This document shows positions 332-25,150 of a DNA stretch of 64,000 bases, in pieces (within the stretch, counting starts at the first letter, position 1; every line of letters starts with the position of its first letter). Location of the stretch: contig QXZA01000029.1 of NCBI GenBank assembly GCA_009886625.1, positions 1 to 64,000 on the forward strand, read 5' to 3'. This DNA comes from Flavobacteriaceae bacterium (GTDB lineage: Bacteria > Bacteroidota > Bacteroidia > Flavobacteriales > Flavobacteriaceae). Position numbers and translations under genes: made by a program. A model generated the notes under the pieces. The model worked only from the letters and a program-made list of their open reading frames with translations, searched no databases and was not told the origin of the DNA.

Positions 332-2386
332 TTATTCTGGATATTCTATTCGGAGTTGATAGACATTAATCAATTTTCGTAAAAGCACCTTTTTAACGGT
401 CTCTATTTCTGATAATGTAATATTAGAATTATTGAATTGAAGCGCATTCATTTTGCTAGTTACAATCTTTTCAATAAAATGTTTTAATTGTTCTATATCA
501 GGGGATTTCAAACTTTTAGAGGCGGCTTCTACAGCATCTGCCATCATTAAAATTGCATTTTCTTTTGAAAAAGGTCTTGGACCTGGGTATTGAAAATCCT
601 CAATGTGAGTATTGTCTGGATCCAACTCCAATTGTTTTTTATAAAAATAATAGACCGAAGAATCACCATGATGGGTTCTTATAAAATCGATTACACGATC
701 GGGTAATTTATTTTTTCGAGCAATAGCGATACCATCCAAAACATGATTAATAATAATTTGAGCACTTTGCTTGGGAGTAAGAGCACTATGAGGAGATTCT
801 GATGCAATCTGATTTTCTGAAAAATATTTTGGCTGCTTAAGCTTTCCAATGTCGTGGTAAAGCGCCCCCACACGAACTAATAAAGTATTTGCTCCTATTT
901 CGTTGGCAGCAGCCTCTGCAAGATTAGCTACTTGTAAAGAGTGATGAAAGGTCCCTGGAGCTTGATCAGAAAGTTCTTTTAACAACTTAGAGTTTGTGTC
1001 TGAAAGCTCTAATAATGAAACATCTGATATCAAACCAAATAACTTTTCATAAATATAAATCAAGGGTTGTACAAAAAGCATTAAAAGTCCATTTAGTATA
1101 AATAAACCAATGGTAAGCAAATCAATTTTCAAGAAAGTTCCCTCTTGAATTATGGTAAATGCGATGTAGGCAATCAAATATACTAGTACGATTTGACCTA
1201 CAGAAATGAATAAATTTGCACGGCGGTATAATTGATCAATGGATTGAATGGTTACAATCCCAGCAACAATTTGAAGAAACACAAACTCAAAGCTATTGGG
1301 TACAATAAACCCAATCAATAGTATAGTAAGCAAATGAGCAAAAAGTCCCAAACGAGCATCAAAAAAAGTTTTGATAATAAGAGGCAAAATACACAAAGGT
1401 GCAGCAAAAATAAGGACGGTATTGTATCCCATTAAAATGGTAGTGACCAAAATAACAAATACAATATTGAAAAAAATAAAGGTTAGTTTTCGATTGTTTT
1501 CATATATAGCTAAACGATACTTGTGTAAAAACAATAATAGTAATGAAAAGGTCAAGAAAATAAGAATGGAATACCCTATCAAAATCCAAACTGAACTTAC
1601 ATCATCGCTTTCTAGCATAGAAAACTCTCTTCGTAAAGAGGTTAATGCTTCAAAATGACTTTCATCTACTACCTCTCCTTCCGCAATTATTAATTCCCCA
1701 GAGGAAACTACACCCCTGGAGAGAGAAATGTTTTGGAGGGCTTCATTTACTGCATCTTGATAAAAAACGGTATCTAATGAAACATTAGGAGTAATAAGTT
1801 CAAAGAACAAATCATTAAATACATCAAAATAGTCTTCATAATTGGATCCCTCAAACCACTGAGTTAAACGTTCAAAAAGAATATCTGATTTAAAAAGCTG
1901 TTCAATTGAAAGAGGGTACTCTATATTTTCTTGTATGAGTAATATTTCCTCATTAGCCTGATGTTTATAATTTGGTGGGAGCACCCCATATTCATAAATT
2001 TTATTTAATATTTTTTCTCCAAACTGATAAACACTATCAAATACCATTGGGTTTTCGAGAATAGGAAAAAATCGTGTAAAGTCATCTTGATATCGTGAAA
2101 GCACTTCTTCCTTTATCTTAAGGTCACTTCTCAAATAAGGTTTCAAAGTATTCAAAGCAGCCTCTTGATCTACTTTTACTTCAGCTTCTGATTTTAAAAT
2201 GGAAAAATCAAATGGAGCATAATAACTGGGGTATTGCCATGCTCTACCCTTTTGGAATTCATATTTAAACTGTCCCCCTATTGGAAAAAGGTTGAGAATA
2301 ATTAAAGAGCTAACAAGTATAAGTACAGACTTGTAAATTATTTTTTGTTGAGCCACAATGTAATTCCAGAAGGATTTCAAAATCAA
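332..2386 (-). CDS. pgpH: PgpH-type 7TM HD-domain phosphodiesterase
   Basis: Predicted inner-membrane cyclic-dinucleotide phosphodiesterase of the 7TMR-HD (PgpH) family, whose characterised members hydrolyse c-di-AMP. The 684-residue protein has one N-terminal membrane helix (about residues 18-38), an extracytoplasmic region to about 260, a block of about seven membrane helices (about 265-455) and a C-terminal HD domain. The HD residues are visible as HHSLQ, YHDIGK, RTHHGD and MADAVEA. Length and order are normal for the family. It stands alone, divergent from the NlpC/P60 gene. The substrate is assigned by family only; the symbol is used in that sense. Confidence 0.85.
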   Translation of the reverse strand: MILKSFWNYIVAQQKIIYKSVLILVSSLIILNLFPIGGQFKYEFQKGRAWQYPSYYAPFDFSILKSEAEVKVDQEAALNTLKPYLRSDLKIKEEVLSRYQDDFTRFFPILENPMVFDSVYQFGEKILNKIYEYGVLPPNYKHQANEEILLIQENIEYPLSIEQLFKSDILFERLTQWFEGSNYEDYFDVFNDLFFELITPNVSLDTVFYQDAVNEALQNISLSRGVVSSGELIIAEGEVVDESHFEALTSLRREFSMLESDDVSSVWILIGYSILIFLTFSLLLLFLHKYRLAIYENNRKLTFIFFNIVFVILVTTILMGYNTVLIFAAPLCILPLIIKTFFDARLGLFAHLLTILLIGFIVPNSFEFVFLQIVAGIVTIQSIDQLYRRANLFISVGQIVLVYLIAYIAFTIIQEGTFLKIDLLTIGLFILNGLLMLFVQPLIYIYEKLFGLISDVSLLELSDTNSKLLKELSDQAPGTFHHSLQVANLAEAAANEIGANTLLVRVGALYHDIGKLKQPKYFSENQIASESPHSALTPKQSAQIIINHVLDGIAIARKNKLPDRVIDFIRTHHGDSSVYYFYKKQLELDPDNTHIEDFQYPGPRPFSKENAILMMADAVEAASKSLKSPDIEQLKHFIEKIVTSKMNALQFNNSNITLSEIETVKKVLLRKLINVYQLRIEYPE

Positions 2387-23375: not shown

Positions 23376-25150
23376 ATGGAAGCATTTGTTGTATCGGCTT
23401 TAAAATATAGACCTAGTACTTTTGAAGAAGTAGTAGGGCAAGAAAGTATTACAAGAACCCTACAAAACAGTCTTGAAACAAATCAACTTGCGCAAGCACT
23501 TCTTTTTTGTGGTCCCAGAGGAGTAGGAAAGACCTCCTGTGCAAGAATACTTGCAAAACAAATAAACAGTGCAGTTACACAAGAAGATGAGGACTATTCT
23601 TTCAATATTTTTGAATTGGATGCTGCTTCAAACAACTCTGTGGAAGACATACGAAAAATCAACGAGCAAGTAAGGATTCCTCCACAAATTGGCACCCACA
23701 AAATATACATCATTGATGAAGCACATATGCTCTCCACAGCTGCTTTTAACGCTTTTCTAAAAACCTTAGAAGAACCGCCCAAGCACGTGATCTTTATTTT
23801 GGCCACTACCGAAAAAAATAAAATCATTCCTACGGTACTTTCCCGTTGCCAAGTCTATGATTTCAAACGTATTTCCATTCTTGACATTCAGAAATATCTT
23901 GCAAAGATAGCTGCAGATCGAAAGTTAGTATTTGAAGAAAACGCTTTATATCTTATTGCACAAAAAGCAGAAGGAGCCTTAAGAGATGCTTTGTCTATTT
24001 TTGACCGTATGGTTAGTTTTACTCAAGGAAATTTAACCGCTACTACTGTAGCCGACAATTTGAATGTTCTTGATCATCAAACCTATACAGATTTAGGCTA
24101 TTTCATCTTTAAAAACGATATCCCAGGTATTTTAACTGCTTATGATGGCTTACTTCAGCGAGGTATTGATAGTTTACAATTTGTAAGTGGATTGGGAGAT
24201 CACTTTCGAAATTTGATGTTGGCCAAAGATCCCAAAACCTTAAGTTTAATGGAAGTAGGTGCCAGTATCAAAGAAGCCTATACAGCGGCTACTACTCCCC
24301 TAACCCCAGACTATCTGCTCGATGCAATCACTTTAATTAACACTTGTGAAATAGGCTATAAAAACTGTAAAAACAGAAGGGTACATGTAGAACTCTGCCT
24401 TATGCAGCTTGCCTCGCTCCATTTTAATGGAGAAAAAAAAAAGGCTACATAATCCCAGCCACAGAGTTTAAGAACAAACCCCTTCCTACACAAGCCACTC
24501 GCATTCCTGAACCTCAAATTAAGAAAGAAGAAACTCCTGCATCAACTGTTGCAGAAGCTGAACCTTATCCCACTAAAGAAAGACCACCAGAAGTAACTCC
24601 TCCAACCCCAACCCCAGCGGGAGAAACCCCCAAAGTGGAATCAAAAGTTGAAGAACCTAAAAAAGAGTACACCTCTTCTAAAGCAGTTTCCTCACAAGTT
24701 TCTGGGTTTTCACTTTCTAGTATTGCACTAAAAAAAGCAGCCAAAGAAAAAAGCCAACCTAAAGTAATTGAAACTGATCTAACTGAAGATCCGTTTGAAC
24801 TGGAACAAGTAGAAAGCCTCTGGAAACAGTACATAGAAAATAGTAAAAAGGAGGGGAAAAGTAATATTGCGGCTATTTTGAGCATGAATAAAGTGAGCCT
24901 AAATAAAGATTTTGAATTGGGCTTTGTGGTGGCCAATGAAATGAATCAAGTGGAATTGTCCAAAGAAATGGAACGTTTAATTCCCTTTTTACGCAATGCC
25001 TTAAACAACCAAAGCCTAAGCATAAAACTTGAAATTAGCGAAACTACAAGAGAGGATGCTGTCTATTCTCCCAATGAAAAATACCTGCATCTACTCAAAA
25101 TAAACCCCAATTTGGATTCCCTCCGCACAACTTTTGATTTGGATTTTTAA
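23376..25150 (+). CDS. dnaX: DNA polymerase III gamma/tau subunit, split by a -1 frameshift
   Basis: Clamp-loader ATPase of the replicative polymerase. From ATG 23376 the first frame reads 358 residues to a TAA at 24450-24452. It contains Walker A GPRGVGKTS, Walker B IIDEAHM, LKTLEEPP, and sensor/SRC motif LSRCQ: a complete AAA+ module plus collar, like E. coli gamma. The frame one base back is open from the A-run through 25150 and encodes a Pro/Glu-rich linker and a tau-like C-terminal domain, giving about 591 residues in total. The junction is an A10 run (24433-24442) ending in the slippery heptamer A AAA AAG. The four zinc cysteines of E. coli DnaX are absent, as is common in Flavobacteriaceae. 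A sequencing error in the homopolymer is the alternative. Confidence 0.9.
24433..24460 (+). other. Slippery A10 site in dnaX with a small downstream hairpin
   Basis: Ten consecutive A then GG. In frame 0 it reads GAA AAA AAA AAG GCT ACA TAA, containing the -1 heptamer A AAA AAG (24437-24443). A 4-bp stem GGCT (24443-24446)/AGCC (24457-24460) follows at once. A GGAG tetramer (24429-24432) precedes it. Homopolymers of this length also support RNA-polymerase slippage. Confidence 0.75.

What the first reader, a model, noticed from the sequence alone, without database searches (positions are those of the whole stretch)
24429..24460. dnaX requires a -1 frameshift at an A10 run to make the tau-like product
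Frame 0 stops 9 bases after the A-run (TAA 24450-24452) and would give a 358-residue gamma-like ATPase. The -1 frame is open without a stop from the A-run to 25150 and encodes a Pro/Glu-rich linker and a C-terminal domain. The site contains A AAA AAG, the heptamer used in E. coli dnaX, while the A10 length resembles the Thermus dnaX case, where RNA polymerase slips. With Shine-Dalgarno use reduced in Bacteroidota and only a 4-bp hairpin downstream, transcriptional slippage seems more likely than ribosomal frameshifting. Two clamp-loader forms would result. I see this as the best candidate for an unreported recoding event in the window.
Basis: partly seen in the sequence, partly recalled or inferred. 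Interest (0 to 1): 0.72.

Follow-up and report, generated by a model that had tools for sequence, protein, structure and literature searches.

The report
Slippery A10 module in bacterial dnaX
A run of ten A's with an RNA hairpin right before it sits inside the DNA-replication gene dnaX of this bacterium and of many relatives across its phylum, and it probably makes RNA polymerase stutter so that one gene yields a short and a long clamp-loader protein whatever frame the gene is written in.

Summary
Frame 0 of dnaX (23379-24452) stops just after A10 (24433-24442), and the tau C-terminus lies in the -1 frame. It is no assembly error: 23 of 32 readable genus members need the same shift. The run is kept whatever the frame: 258 of 300 Bacteroidota dnaX sites examined (a sample enriched for shifted genes) have 9 or more A's, with tau in frame 0 (136), -1 (102) or +1 (14), and the other two frames usually close within a few codons. 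In this genome coding runs of A9 or more are scarce (9 seen, 39 expected), while in-frame A_AAA_AAG is not avoided. Best reading: hairpin-stimulated transcriptional slippage makes gamma and tau. Two-ORF dnaX genes with 10 A's were reported in 2013 (PMC3711429), so the event type is known; frame-independence and hairpin I found in no paper searched. Another genus and a few distant genomes seem to use ribosomal frameshifting instead. No RNA or protein data were available.

The parts
23379..24452 (+). dnaX frame 0: gamma-like product, 357 aa, AAA+ domains I-III
   Evidence: TIGR02397 dnaX_nterm E 2.3e-107; NF011531 positions 2-370
24417..24432 (+). RNA hairpin CUCCAU-UUUA-AUGGAG whose 3' arm touches the A run
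   Evidence: -6.9 kcal/mol, z -2.16; relatives; covariation of the family hairpin, which is in another register:
24433..24442 (+). A10 slippery run (contains in-phase A_AAA_AAG at 24437-24443)
   Evidence: A9-A14 at 258 of 300 sites
24450..24452 (+). TAA that ends frame 0 (gamma) seven bases after the run
24469..24471 (+). TAA that ends the +1 frame (for RNAs with 9 or 12 A's)
   Evidence: read; +1 frame open for 8 codons
24443..25150 (+). tau-specific linker and C-terminal domain in the -1 frame, 235 codons; first ATG/GTG/TTG of that frame at 24635
   Evidence: (NF011531 positions 391-612, E 2.9e-23)

Best explanation
The A10 run plus the hairpin that abuts it is a transcriptional slippage module. 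As RNA polymerase fills its 9-10 bp RNA:DNA hybrid with A's, the nascent hairpin folds at the exit channel and helps the homopolymer realign, so the mRNA pool carries variable A counts (inferred). RNAs read in frame 0 give gamma, because the stop follows at once; RNAs with 11 (or 8) A's give tau, about 590 aa; RNAs with 9 or 12 A's stop a few codons on and also give a gamma-like form. Because the two non-tau frames close soon, the module works whichever frame the genome writes tau in. Shown: anatomy, conservation, frame-independence, hairpin stability beyond synonymous choice, covariation in the family, scarcity of A9+ runs in this genome. Inferred: the slippage itself, its rate, the role of the hairpin, and the two proteins.
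For: (1) Run kept, frame free: 258 of 300 unique sites have A9 or more; of these 136 have tau in frame 0, 102 in -1, 14 in +1, 6 unclear. On a 290-gene tree the frame state changes at least 52 times, run presence 13 times (single gene, FastTree). Non-conserved direction is the criterion for transcriptional realignment in PMC3711429. (2) Off-frame stops: median 2-3 codons at run sites (both within 6 codons at 111 of 136 in-frame sites; the longest exception is 85), 17 in in-frame genes with 6 or fewer A's (n 12; MWU p 4e-6), 8 at control positions of the same genes. (3) Hairpin touching the run: -5.26 vs -3.12 kcal/mol under synonymous reshuffling, 189 representatives, Wilcoxon p 8e-19; control positions mean z -0.12. 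Stem offset 0 in 89 of the 137 sites with stems of 5 bp or more. Family covariation score 0.273 vs 0.172, reached by 0 of 500 shuffles. (4) Own genome: A9+ runs in ORFs 9 vs 39.1 expected, A10 1 vs 8.9, T9+ 5 vs 18.6, while in-frame A_AAA_AAG is 62 vs 44.5. (5) Of 102 run sites needing -1, 50 (33 genera) lack an in-phase A_AAA_AAG. (6) Precedents in passages of PMC5009743: Thermus dnaX slips on nine A's; a Roseiflexus IS slips with a stem-loop directly 5' of the motif.
Against: No RNA-seq or protein data. In the window's genus all 23 shifted species keep G after A10, so A_AAA_AAG is in phase in all of them, as a ribosomal site would want. The five genus members searched show only the UUU anticodon for tRNALys by pattern, as in E. 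coli, which permits ribosomal shifting. In the Roseiflexus case the stem-loop gives loss of one base, whereas tau here needs a net gain of one (or loss of two). The hairpin is not universal: 114 of 251 run sites have an abutting stem under 5 bp or none, and outside the family p<=0.05 in only 19% of 125 representatives. One covariation measure, the number of pairs with a change on both sides, is not above shuffles (4 vs 3.2, 161 of 500). In AT-rich genomes codon choice alone makes such runs often: given the amino acids, A9 or more is expected by synonymous choice in 47% of the in-frame run genes (64.7 of 136, which looks only at sites that have the run). In-frame A_AAA_AAA is scarce (127 vs 181.9), which ribosomal shiftiness could also cause. 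Genus g21 makes the same -1 switch with no run.
Confidence: 0.8

Rival explanations
1. Programmed -1 ribosomal frameshifting at A_AAA_AAG makes tau, the mirror image of E. coli dnaX; the run is long only because the slippery site sits in it.
For: In-phase A_AAA_AAG in the window and in all 23 shifted species of the genus; only tRNALys(UUU) seen by pattern in the five genus members searched; genus g21 of the same family needs -1 without a run in 18 of 18 readable species; two genomes of family f7 have A_AAA_AAG_TAG followed by a strong predicted hairpin.
Against: No downstream structure above shuffles in the window (z -0.72); the GGAG that might act as Shine-Dalgarno lies only 4 nt before the heptamer (about 10 nt in E. 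coli, recalled); A_AAA_AAG is not avoided in this genome (62 vs 44.5); the nine genus members written in frame keep A10 followed by T or C, or A11; direction and phase are not conserved over the phylum.
Confidence: 0.12
2. Both layers act: RNA polymerase slips on the run and ribosomes also shift at A_AAA_AAG in this genus.
For: Both signals coincide at the window site.
Against: One layer suffices; heptamer not avoided in the sampled genome.
Confidence: 0.06
3. Sequencing or assembly artefact, or a decaying gene: the true run has 11 A's or tau is lost.
For: Homopolymers are error-prone and the genome is a draft in 30 contigs.
Against: Same A10 and same -1 need in 23 of 32 readable genus members from separate genomes, and a -1 need at an A9 or A10 run in single-contig genomes of other genera (G399, G470, G098); the -1 frame keeps the tau profile match.
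Confidence: 0.01
4. The C-terminal part is translated on its own from an internal start, with no fusion.
For: A GTG occurs at 24635 in the -1 frame.
Against: The residues right after the junction, mostly x-[YF]-I-I-P, are shared among genus members in the -1 frame ahead of any start (contexts); in four g21 loci, one of them with masked bases, no ATG/GTG/TTG lies within 240 nt after the junction.
Confidence: 0.01

Closest known systems
Two-ORF dnaX genes needing -1 for tau (GeneTack dnaX cluster, Antonov et al. 2013, PMC3711429)
   Same: dnaX split at a poly-A run, tau in the -1 frame; nine of 17 genes have 10 A's; transcriptional realignment proposed
   Different: That cluster holds only genes that need a shift and only -1; no upstream hairpin is mentioned in the passages read, and its species list (Suppl. 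Fig. S3) was not available. Here in-frame and +1 genes carry the same module.
Thermus thermophilus dnaX transcriptional slippage (Larsen 2000, known here through passages of PMC5009743 and PMC1088944)
   Same: A run (9) in dnaX, stops close by in both other frames, gamma and tau from one gene
   Different: Thermus tau is in frame 0; no abutting hairpin is mentioned in the passages read; different phylum
Roseiflexus IS transposase: nascent stem-loop stimulated slippage (ref. 99 in PMC5009743, passages)
   Same: Inverted repeat with 4-nt loop directly 5' of a slip motif about as long as the RNA:DNA hybrid
   Different: Mobile element, T5C5 motif, one-base deletion; here a core replication gene with A10
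E. coli dnaX -1 ribosomal frameshifting
   Same: A_AAA_AAG in phase; gamma and tau from one gene
   Different: E. coli uses an upstream SD and a downstream stem-loop and the shift makes gamma; here the shift makes tau, no downstream structure above shuffles, structure upstream instead

Membership tests
Transcriptional-slippage dnaX (Thermus type) | Homopolymer run of 9 or more A's at the gamma/tau boundary | tested here: met
   A10 at 24433-24442; 258 of 300 sites
Transcriptional-slippage dnaX (Thermus type) | Both frames other than tau's close soon after the run | tested here: met
   After 2 and 8 codons in the window; median 2-3 codons over run sites
Transcriptional-slippage dnaX (Thermus type) | Direction of the needed shift not conserved among orthologues (criterion of PMC3711429) | tested here: met
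   0 / -1 / +1 = 136 / 102 / 14 run sites; at least 52 changes on the tree
Transcriptional-slippage dnaX (Thermus type) | Slippage-prone runs avoided in coding sequence of the genome | tested here: met
   A9+ 9 vs 39.1, T9+ 5 vs 18.6 in 390.5 kb of ORFs, part of the genome
Transcriptional-slippage dnaX (Thermus type) | mRNA with variable number of A's; two proteins | not testable with these tools
   no reads or proteomics
E. coli-type dnaX -1 PRF | In-phase A_AAA_AAG | tested here: met
   24437-24443
E. coli-type dnaX -1 PRF | Downstream stem-loop | tested here: not met
   24443-24520 z -0.72
E. coli-type dnaX -1 PRF | Shine-Dalgarno-like stimulator about 10 nt upstream | tested here: not met
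   GGAG ends 4 nt before the heptamer and lies in the hairpin arm (spacing rule recalled)
E. coli-type dnaX -1 PRF | Single tRNALys(UUU) | tested here: inconclusive
   pattern search found only UUU in G000 and four other genus members; incomplete genomes, pattern may miss genes
Stem-loop stimulated slippage (Roseiflexus IS type) | Inverted repeat directly 5' of the slip motif | tested here: met
   24417-24432 touches the run; more stable than synonymous choice predicts over relatives, covarying in the family
Stem-loop stimulated slippage (Roseiflexus IS type) | Slippage depends on the stem | not testable with these tools
   needs mutants

The most novel reading that the evidence does not exclude
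Bacteroidota carry an old, frame-independent slippage cassette in dnaX: hairpin, A run as long as the polymerase's RNA:DNA hybrid, and stops in both off-frames. The genomic frame of tau drifts freely (0, -1, +1) because polymerase slippage always makes both products. In some lineages the cassette was replaced by ribosomal frameshifting of three kinds: A_AAR followed at once by a stop (genus g21), A_AAA_AAG_TAG plus a long hairpin (two genomes of family f7), and a +1 shift near GYN_AGG_C (six Bacteroidales genomes).
Probability: 0.5. Interest if true: 0.78.

Novelty: new variant of a known kind. Interest (0 to 1): 0.62.

Why it matters
If true, polymerase slippage, known from Thermus dnaX and from mobile elements, would be a common way in which a large phylum makes its two clamp-loader subunits, and the natural series of runs, hairpins and frames would let one test how nascent RNA structure drives slippage. 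Annotation that does not allow for it would truncate DnaX in such genomes (not examined here; PMC3711429 says that none of its 17 dnaX fs-genes was annotated in RefSeq). It would also show one gene switching between polymerase and ribosome as the level at which the frame is changed.

Tried and rejected
Considered and set aside: assembly error (recurs in separate genomes); internal start for the C-terminal half (no start at the junction); downstream stem-loop in the window (not above shuffles). The first locator script used a text anchor that failed in distant families; it was replaced by a Smith-Waterman locator. In one search I gave wrong coordinates for L265, so that fold says nothing. One search used too strict an E-value and returned nothing; one search repeated it with a laxer one, and the best of its listed matches was 66% identical, so I take it that the Bacteroidales +1 group is not in that sample of 395 class genomes. 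The first tRNALys pattern was too strict and found only G528; one search used a looser one, which still found nothing in 3 of 23 genomes.

Biases: the 300 sites are not a random sample. In one search, 18 of 20 stretches were genomes with a short open frame, taken on purpose, so the 102:136 ratio overstates shifted genes; loci fetched by the searches are the best matches to the query. Of 305 loci, 5 duplicates were dropped; 10 truncated or unclear sites were left out of the tree. The own-family set was chosen by locus number and misses two family members (L138, L139), which counted among the others. In one search I left out 5 of 50 distinct family sequences (L035, L036, L037, L040, L044), whose shorter hairpin lies in the window genus's register, and all of the window's genus. 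The tree is one gene by FastTree. Sequences are related, so p-values from counts of sites are optimistic; reduces this by clustering at 80% identity. The synonymous test of the run itself looks only at sites that have the run.

Next-base bias: G follows the run in 81 of 102 sites needing -1 but in 43 of 136 in-frame sites; by genus G 32, T 16, C 2 for -1, with G commonest in each phase of the run. I have no explanation.

Full report
WHAT IS THERE. In the window dnaX starts at ATG 23379. Frame 0 runs through A10 (24433-24442) as GAA AAA AAA AAG GCT ACA TAA and ends at 24452, giving 357 aa with domains I-III of a clamp loader. The -1 frame is open from 24443 to 25150 (235 codons) and matches positions 391-612 of the same NCBIfam model, NF011531 DnaX gamma/tau, whose first 370 positions match frame 0. 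Only one further place in the genome matches PF13177 over the cut-off; I take it to be delta'. An mRNA with 11 A's would give a tau of about 590 aa (my arithmetic).

RELATIVES IN THE GENUS. A search of 38 genomes of the genus gave 32 readable junctions: 30 and two. In 23 the run is A10 followed by G and tau needs -1, with frame 0 closing 2-7 codons on and the -1 frame open for 219-262 codons. In nine tau is in frame 0 and the run is still there: A10 followed by T (seven), A10 followed by C (L017), or A11 (L023). An assembly error would not give this pattern, and a purely ribosomal A_AAA_AAG site would not by itself explain why A10 stays when T or C follows.

ACROSS THE PHYLUM. Searches of the family (299 genomes), order (148), class (119) and phylum (118), and stretches fetched, gave 305 loci and 300 unique sites, located by local alignment of the end of domain III. 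A run of 9 or more A's is present at 258 of 300: 136 with tau in frame 0, 102 in -1, 14 in +1, 6 unclear. Of the 42 without, 18 are genus g21. The commonest length is 10 in frames 0 (101 of 136) and -1 (90 of 102), and 11 in frame +1 (9 of 14). The sample is enriched for shifted genes because picked them. In one search, drawn evenly over the class, about 33 of 117 matching genomes had a short dnaX frame by my reading of the table. Among named genomes, 22 of 34 readable Bacteroidota and 0 of 43 from other or unassigned phyla have such a run (L316 was cut short, L345 and L375 aligned poorly; in some distant loci the alignment ends early, so the site is less certain). On a 290-gene tree the frame changes at least 52 times and run presence 13 times; nine genera are mixed.

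TWO MORE PARTS OF THE MODULE. First, the non-tau frames close soon: at in-frame run sites 86% of 272 off-frame distances are 5 codons or less, against 38% of 6528 at control positions of the same genes; in-frame genes with 6 or fewer A's (n = 12) have a median of 17 codons. Second, the RNA just before the run often folds into a hairpin whose 3' arm touches the first A. In the window this is CUCCAU-UUUA-AUGGAG (24417-24432; -6.9 kcal/mol, z -2.16); in much of the family it is CUCUAUCA-NNNN-UGAUGGAG, in another register of the same codons. Over 251 run sites the abutting stem averages 4.9 bp against 3.2 in control windows; 137 have 5 bp or more, 114 less or none. With synonymous codons redrawn from each gene's usage (189 representatives at 80% identity), the observed hairpin is -5.26 against -3.12 kcal/mol, Wilcoxon p 8e-19, with p<=0.05 singly in 37%; the own-family set (64) has mean z -2.09, other families (125) -0.76 with p 2e-8, control positions (568) -0.12. 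On 45 family sequences 77% of pair cells are standard pairs against 70% in shuffles and 38-64% when the register is slid; cells changed on both sides are 22 against 9; covariation score 0.273 against 0.172 (0 of 500 shuffles); the number of pairs changed on both sides, 4 against 3.2, is not above shuffles. Examples: CTCTGTCA/TGACGGAG in L088 and L089, CTCCATTA/TAATGGAG in L086, CTCCAC/GTGGAG in L027.

WHICH LAYER SLIPS. For RNA polymerase: the run outlives changes of frame, phase and following base; the hairpin sits where nascent RNA leaves the 9-10 bp hybrid, the arrangement described for the Roseiflexus IS (PMC5009743, passages); and in 444.8 kb of this genome (356 mechanically called ORFs) runs of A9 or more are 9 against 39.1 expected, A10 is 1 (dnaX itself) against 8.9, and T9 or more 5 against 18.6, while in-frame A_AAA_AAG is 62 against 44.5. 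Under-representation of such runs is what PMC1088944 looked for in slippage-prone genomes (passages). Of the 102 run sites that need -1, 50 (33 genera) have no in-phase A_AAA_AAG. For the ribosome: the window's genus always has A_AAA_AAG in phase where tau needs -1; only tRNALys(UUU) was found by pattern in the five members searched; and in-frame A_AAA_AAA is scarce in this genome (127 against 181.9), as it would be under either mechanism. Codon choice in AT-rich genomes also favours A runs: given the amino acids, 47% of the in-frame run genes would have A9 or more by chance, and KK pairs are AAAAAA in 175 of 202 cases at the site against 99 of 151 elsewhere in domain III. So run conservation in frame-0 genes is only moderate evidence alone; the shifted genes, the off-frame stops and the hairpin carry more weight. 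A contribution of the ribosome cannot be excluded.

LINEAGES WITHOUT THE RUN. Genus g21 of the same family (22 genomes searched, 18 with a match) has no run in any of the 18, yet tau is in the -1 frame in all 18. The junction is always AAR TAR, preceded by GAA, GGA or GAG, and the -1 frame goes on at once with [VI]-x-x-[FY]-[IL]-[IL]-[PS] (L116 has masked bases). No common downstream structure was apparent in single folds. I read it as a -1 ribosomal slip of tRNALys with a stop codon waiting; in L111, L115 and L116 the base before AAA is G, which is less favourable. Two genomes of family f7 have A_AAA_AAG_TAG with tau in -1 and folds of -32 and -22 kcal/mol over the 80 nt from the stop (L172, L174), an E. 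coli-like site with the roles of the products reversed. Six named Bacteroidales or Bacteroidetes genomes (L325, L330, L332, L333, L337, L338) have no run and tau in +1 with a shared GYN AGG CAA TCR CRG G[AT]G stretch before the frame-0 stop. These are leads, not settled cases.

PRIOR ART. PMC3711429 (passages and one section read) reported 17 two-ORF dnaX genes in 12 genera, nine with 10 A's, and proposed transcriptional realignment; its species list was in a supplement not held. PMC5009743 (passages) notes that tau seems to derive from ribosomal frameshifting in some bacteria and names Chlorobium phaeobacteroides as a candidate. Passages only were seen of PMC1088944, PMC3971599, PMC12421855 and PMC3017870. 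Eight paper searches listed no paper whose title or shown abstract concerns the hairpin or the frame-independence of this dnaX site; many subscription papers are not in that library, and Larsen 2000 and one further PNAS paper looked up by DOI were not held.

VERDICT. The event type is known; the hairpin, the free frame and the apparent replacements by ribosomal sites are what is new here, as far as these searches show.

Noticed in passing
L033, L034, L101-L116 (genus g21), junction at the end of domain III: All 18 readable dnaX genes lack the A run but still need -1 for tau at AAR_TAR preceded by a purine-rich stretch; candidate ribosomal -1 shift with a stop codon in the A site.
   Followed up: partly
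L172 and L174 (family f7): A_AAA_AAG_TAG with tau in -1 and a strong predicted hairpin a few bases after it; an E. coli-like signal used the other way round.
   Followed up: partly
L325, L330, L332, L333, L337, L338 (Bacteroidales/Bacteroidetes genomes; titles name sheep rumen, horse feces and reindeer for three): dnaX with no A run; frame 0 ends after a shared RQS[RQ][EV] peptide and tau continues in +1; shared GYN_AGG_CAA_TCR_CRG stretch. Site and mechanism of the +1 shift unknown.
   Followed up: partly
run sites: G follows the A run far more often where tau needs -1 (81 of 102) than where it is in frame (43 of 136); unexplained.
   Followed up: partly
L186, L187 (family f16, about 0.6 Mb genomes): Two reduced genomes have A11 with a further frame (129-132 codons) in +1, while three others of that genus (L185, L188, L189) have runs of 7-8 in frame.
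   Followed up: no
L408 (own genome contig C2), ORF 1478-2251 minus strand: One of eight other coding A9 runs in the sampled own genome lies at codons 3-5 (M-A-K-K-K-E) of a 258-codon ORF; slippage there would shift the frame at the very start.
   Followed up: no
G528, G656 and perhaps G399: Genomes of other genera show a match with the CUU anticodon of tRNALys beside UUU (G399's match may be another tRNA); CUU would disfavour ribosomal shifting on AAG there.
   Followed up: no
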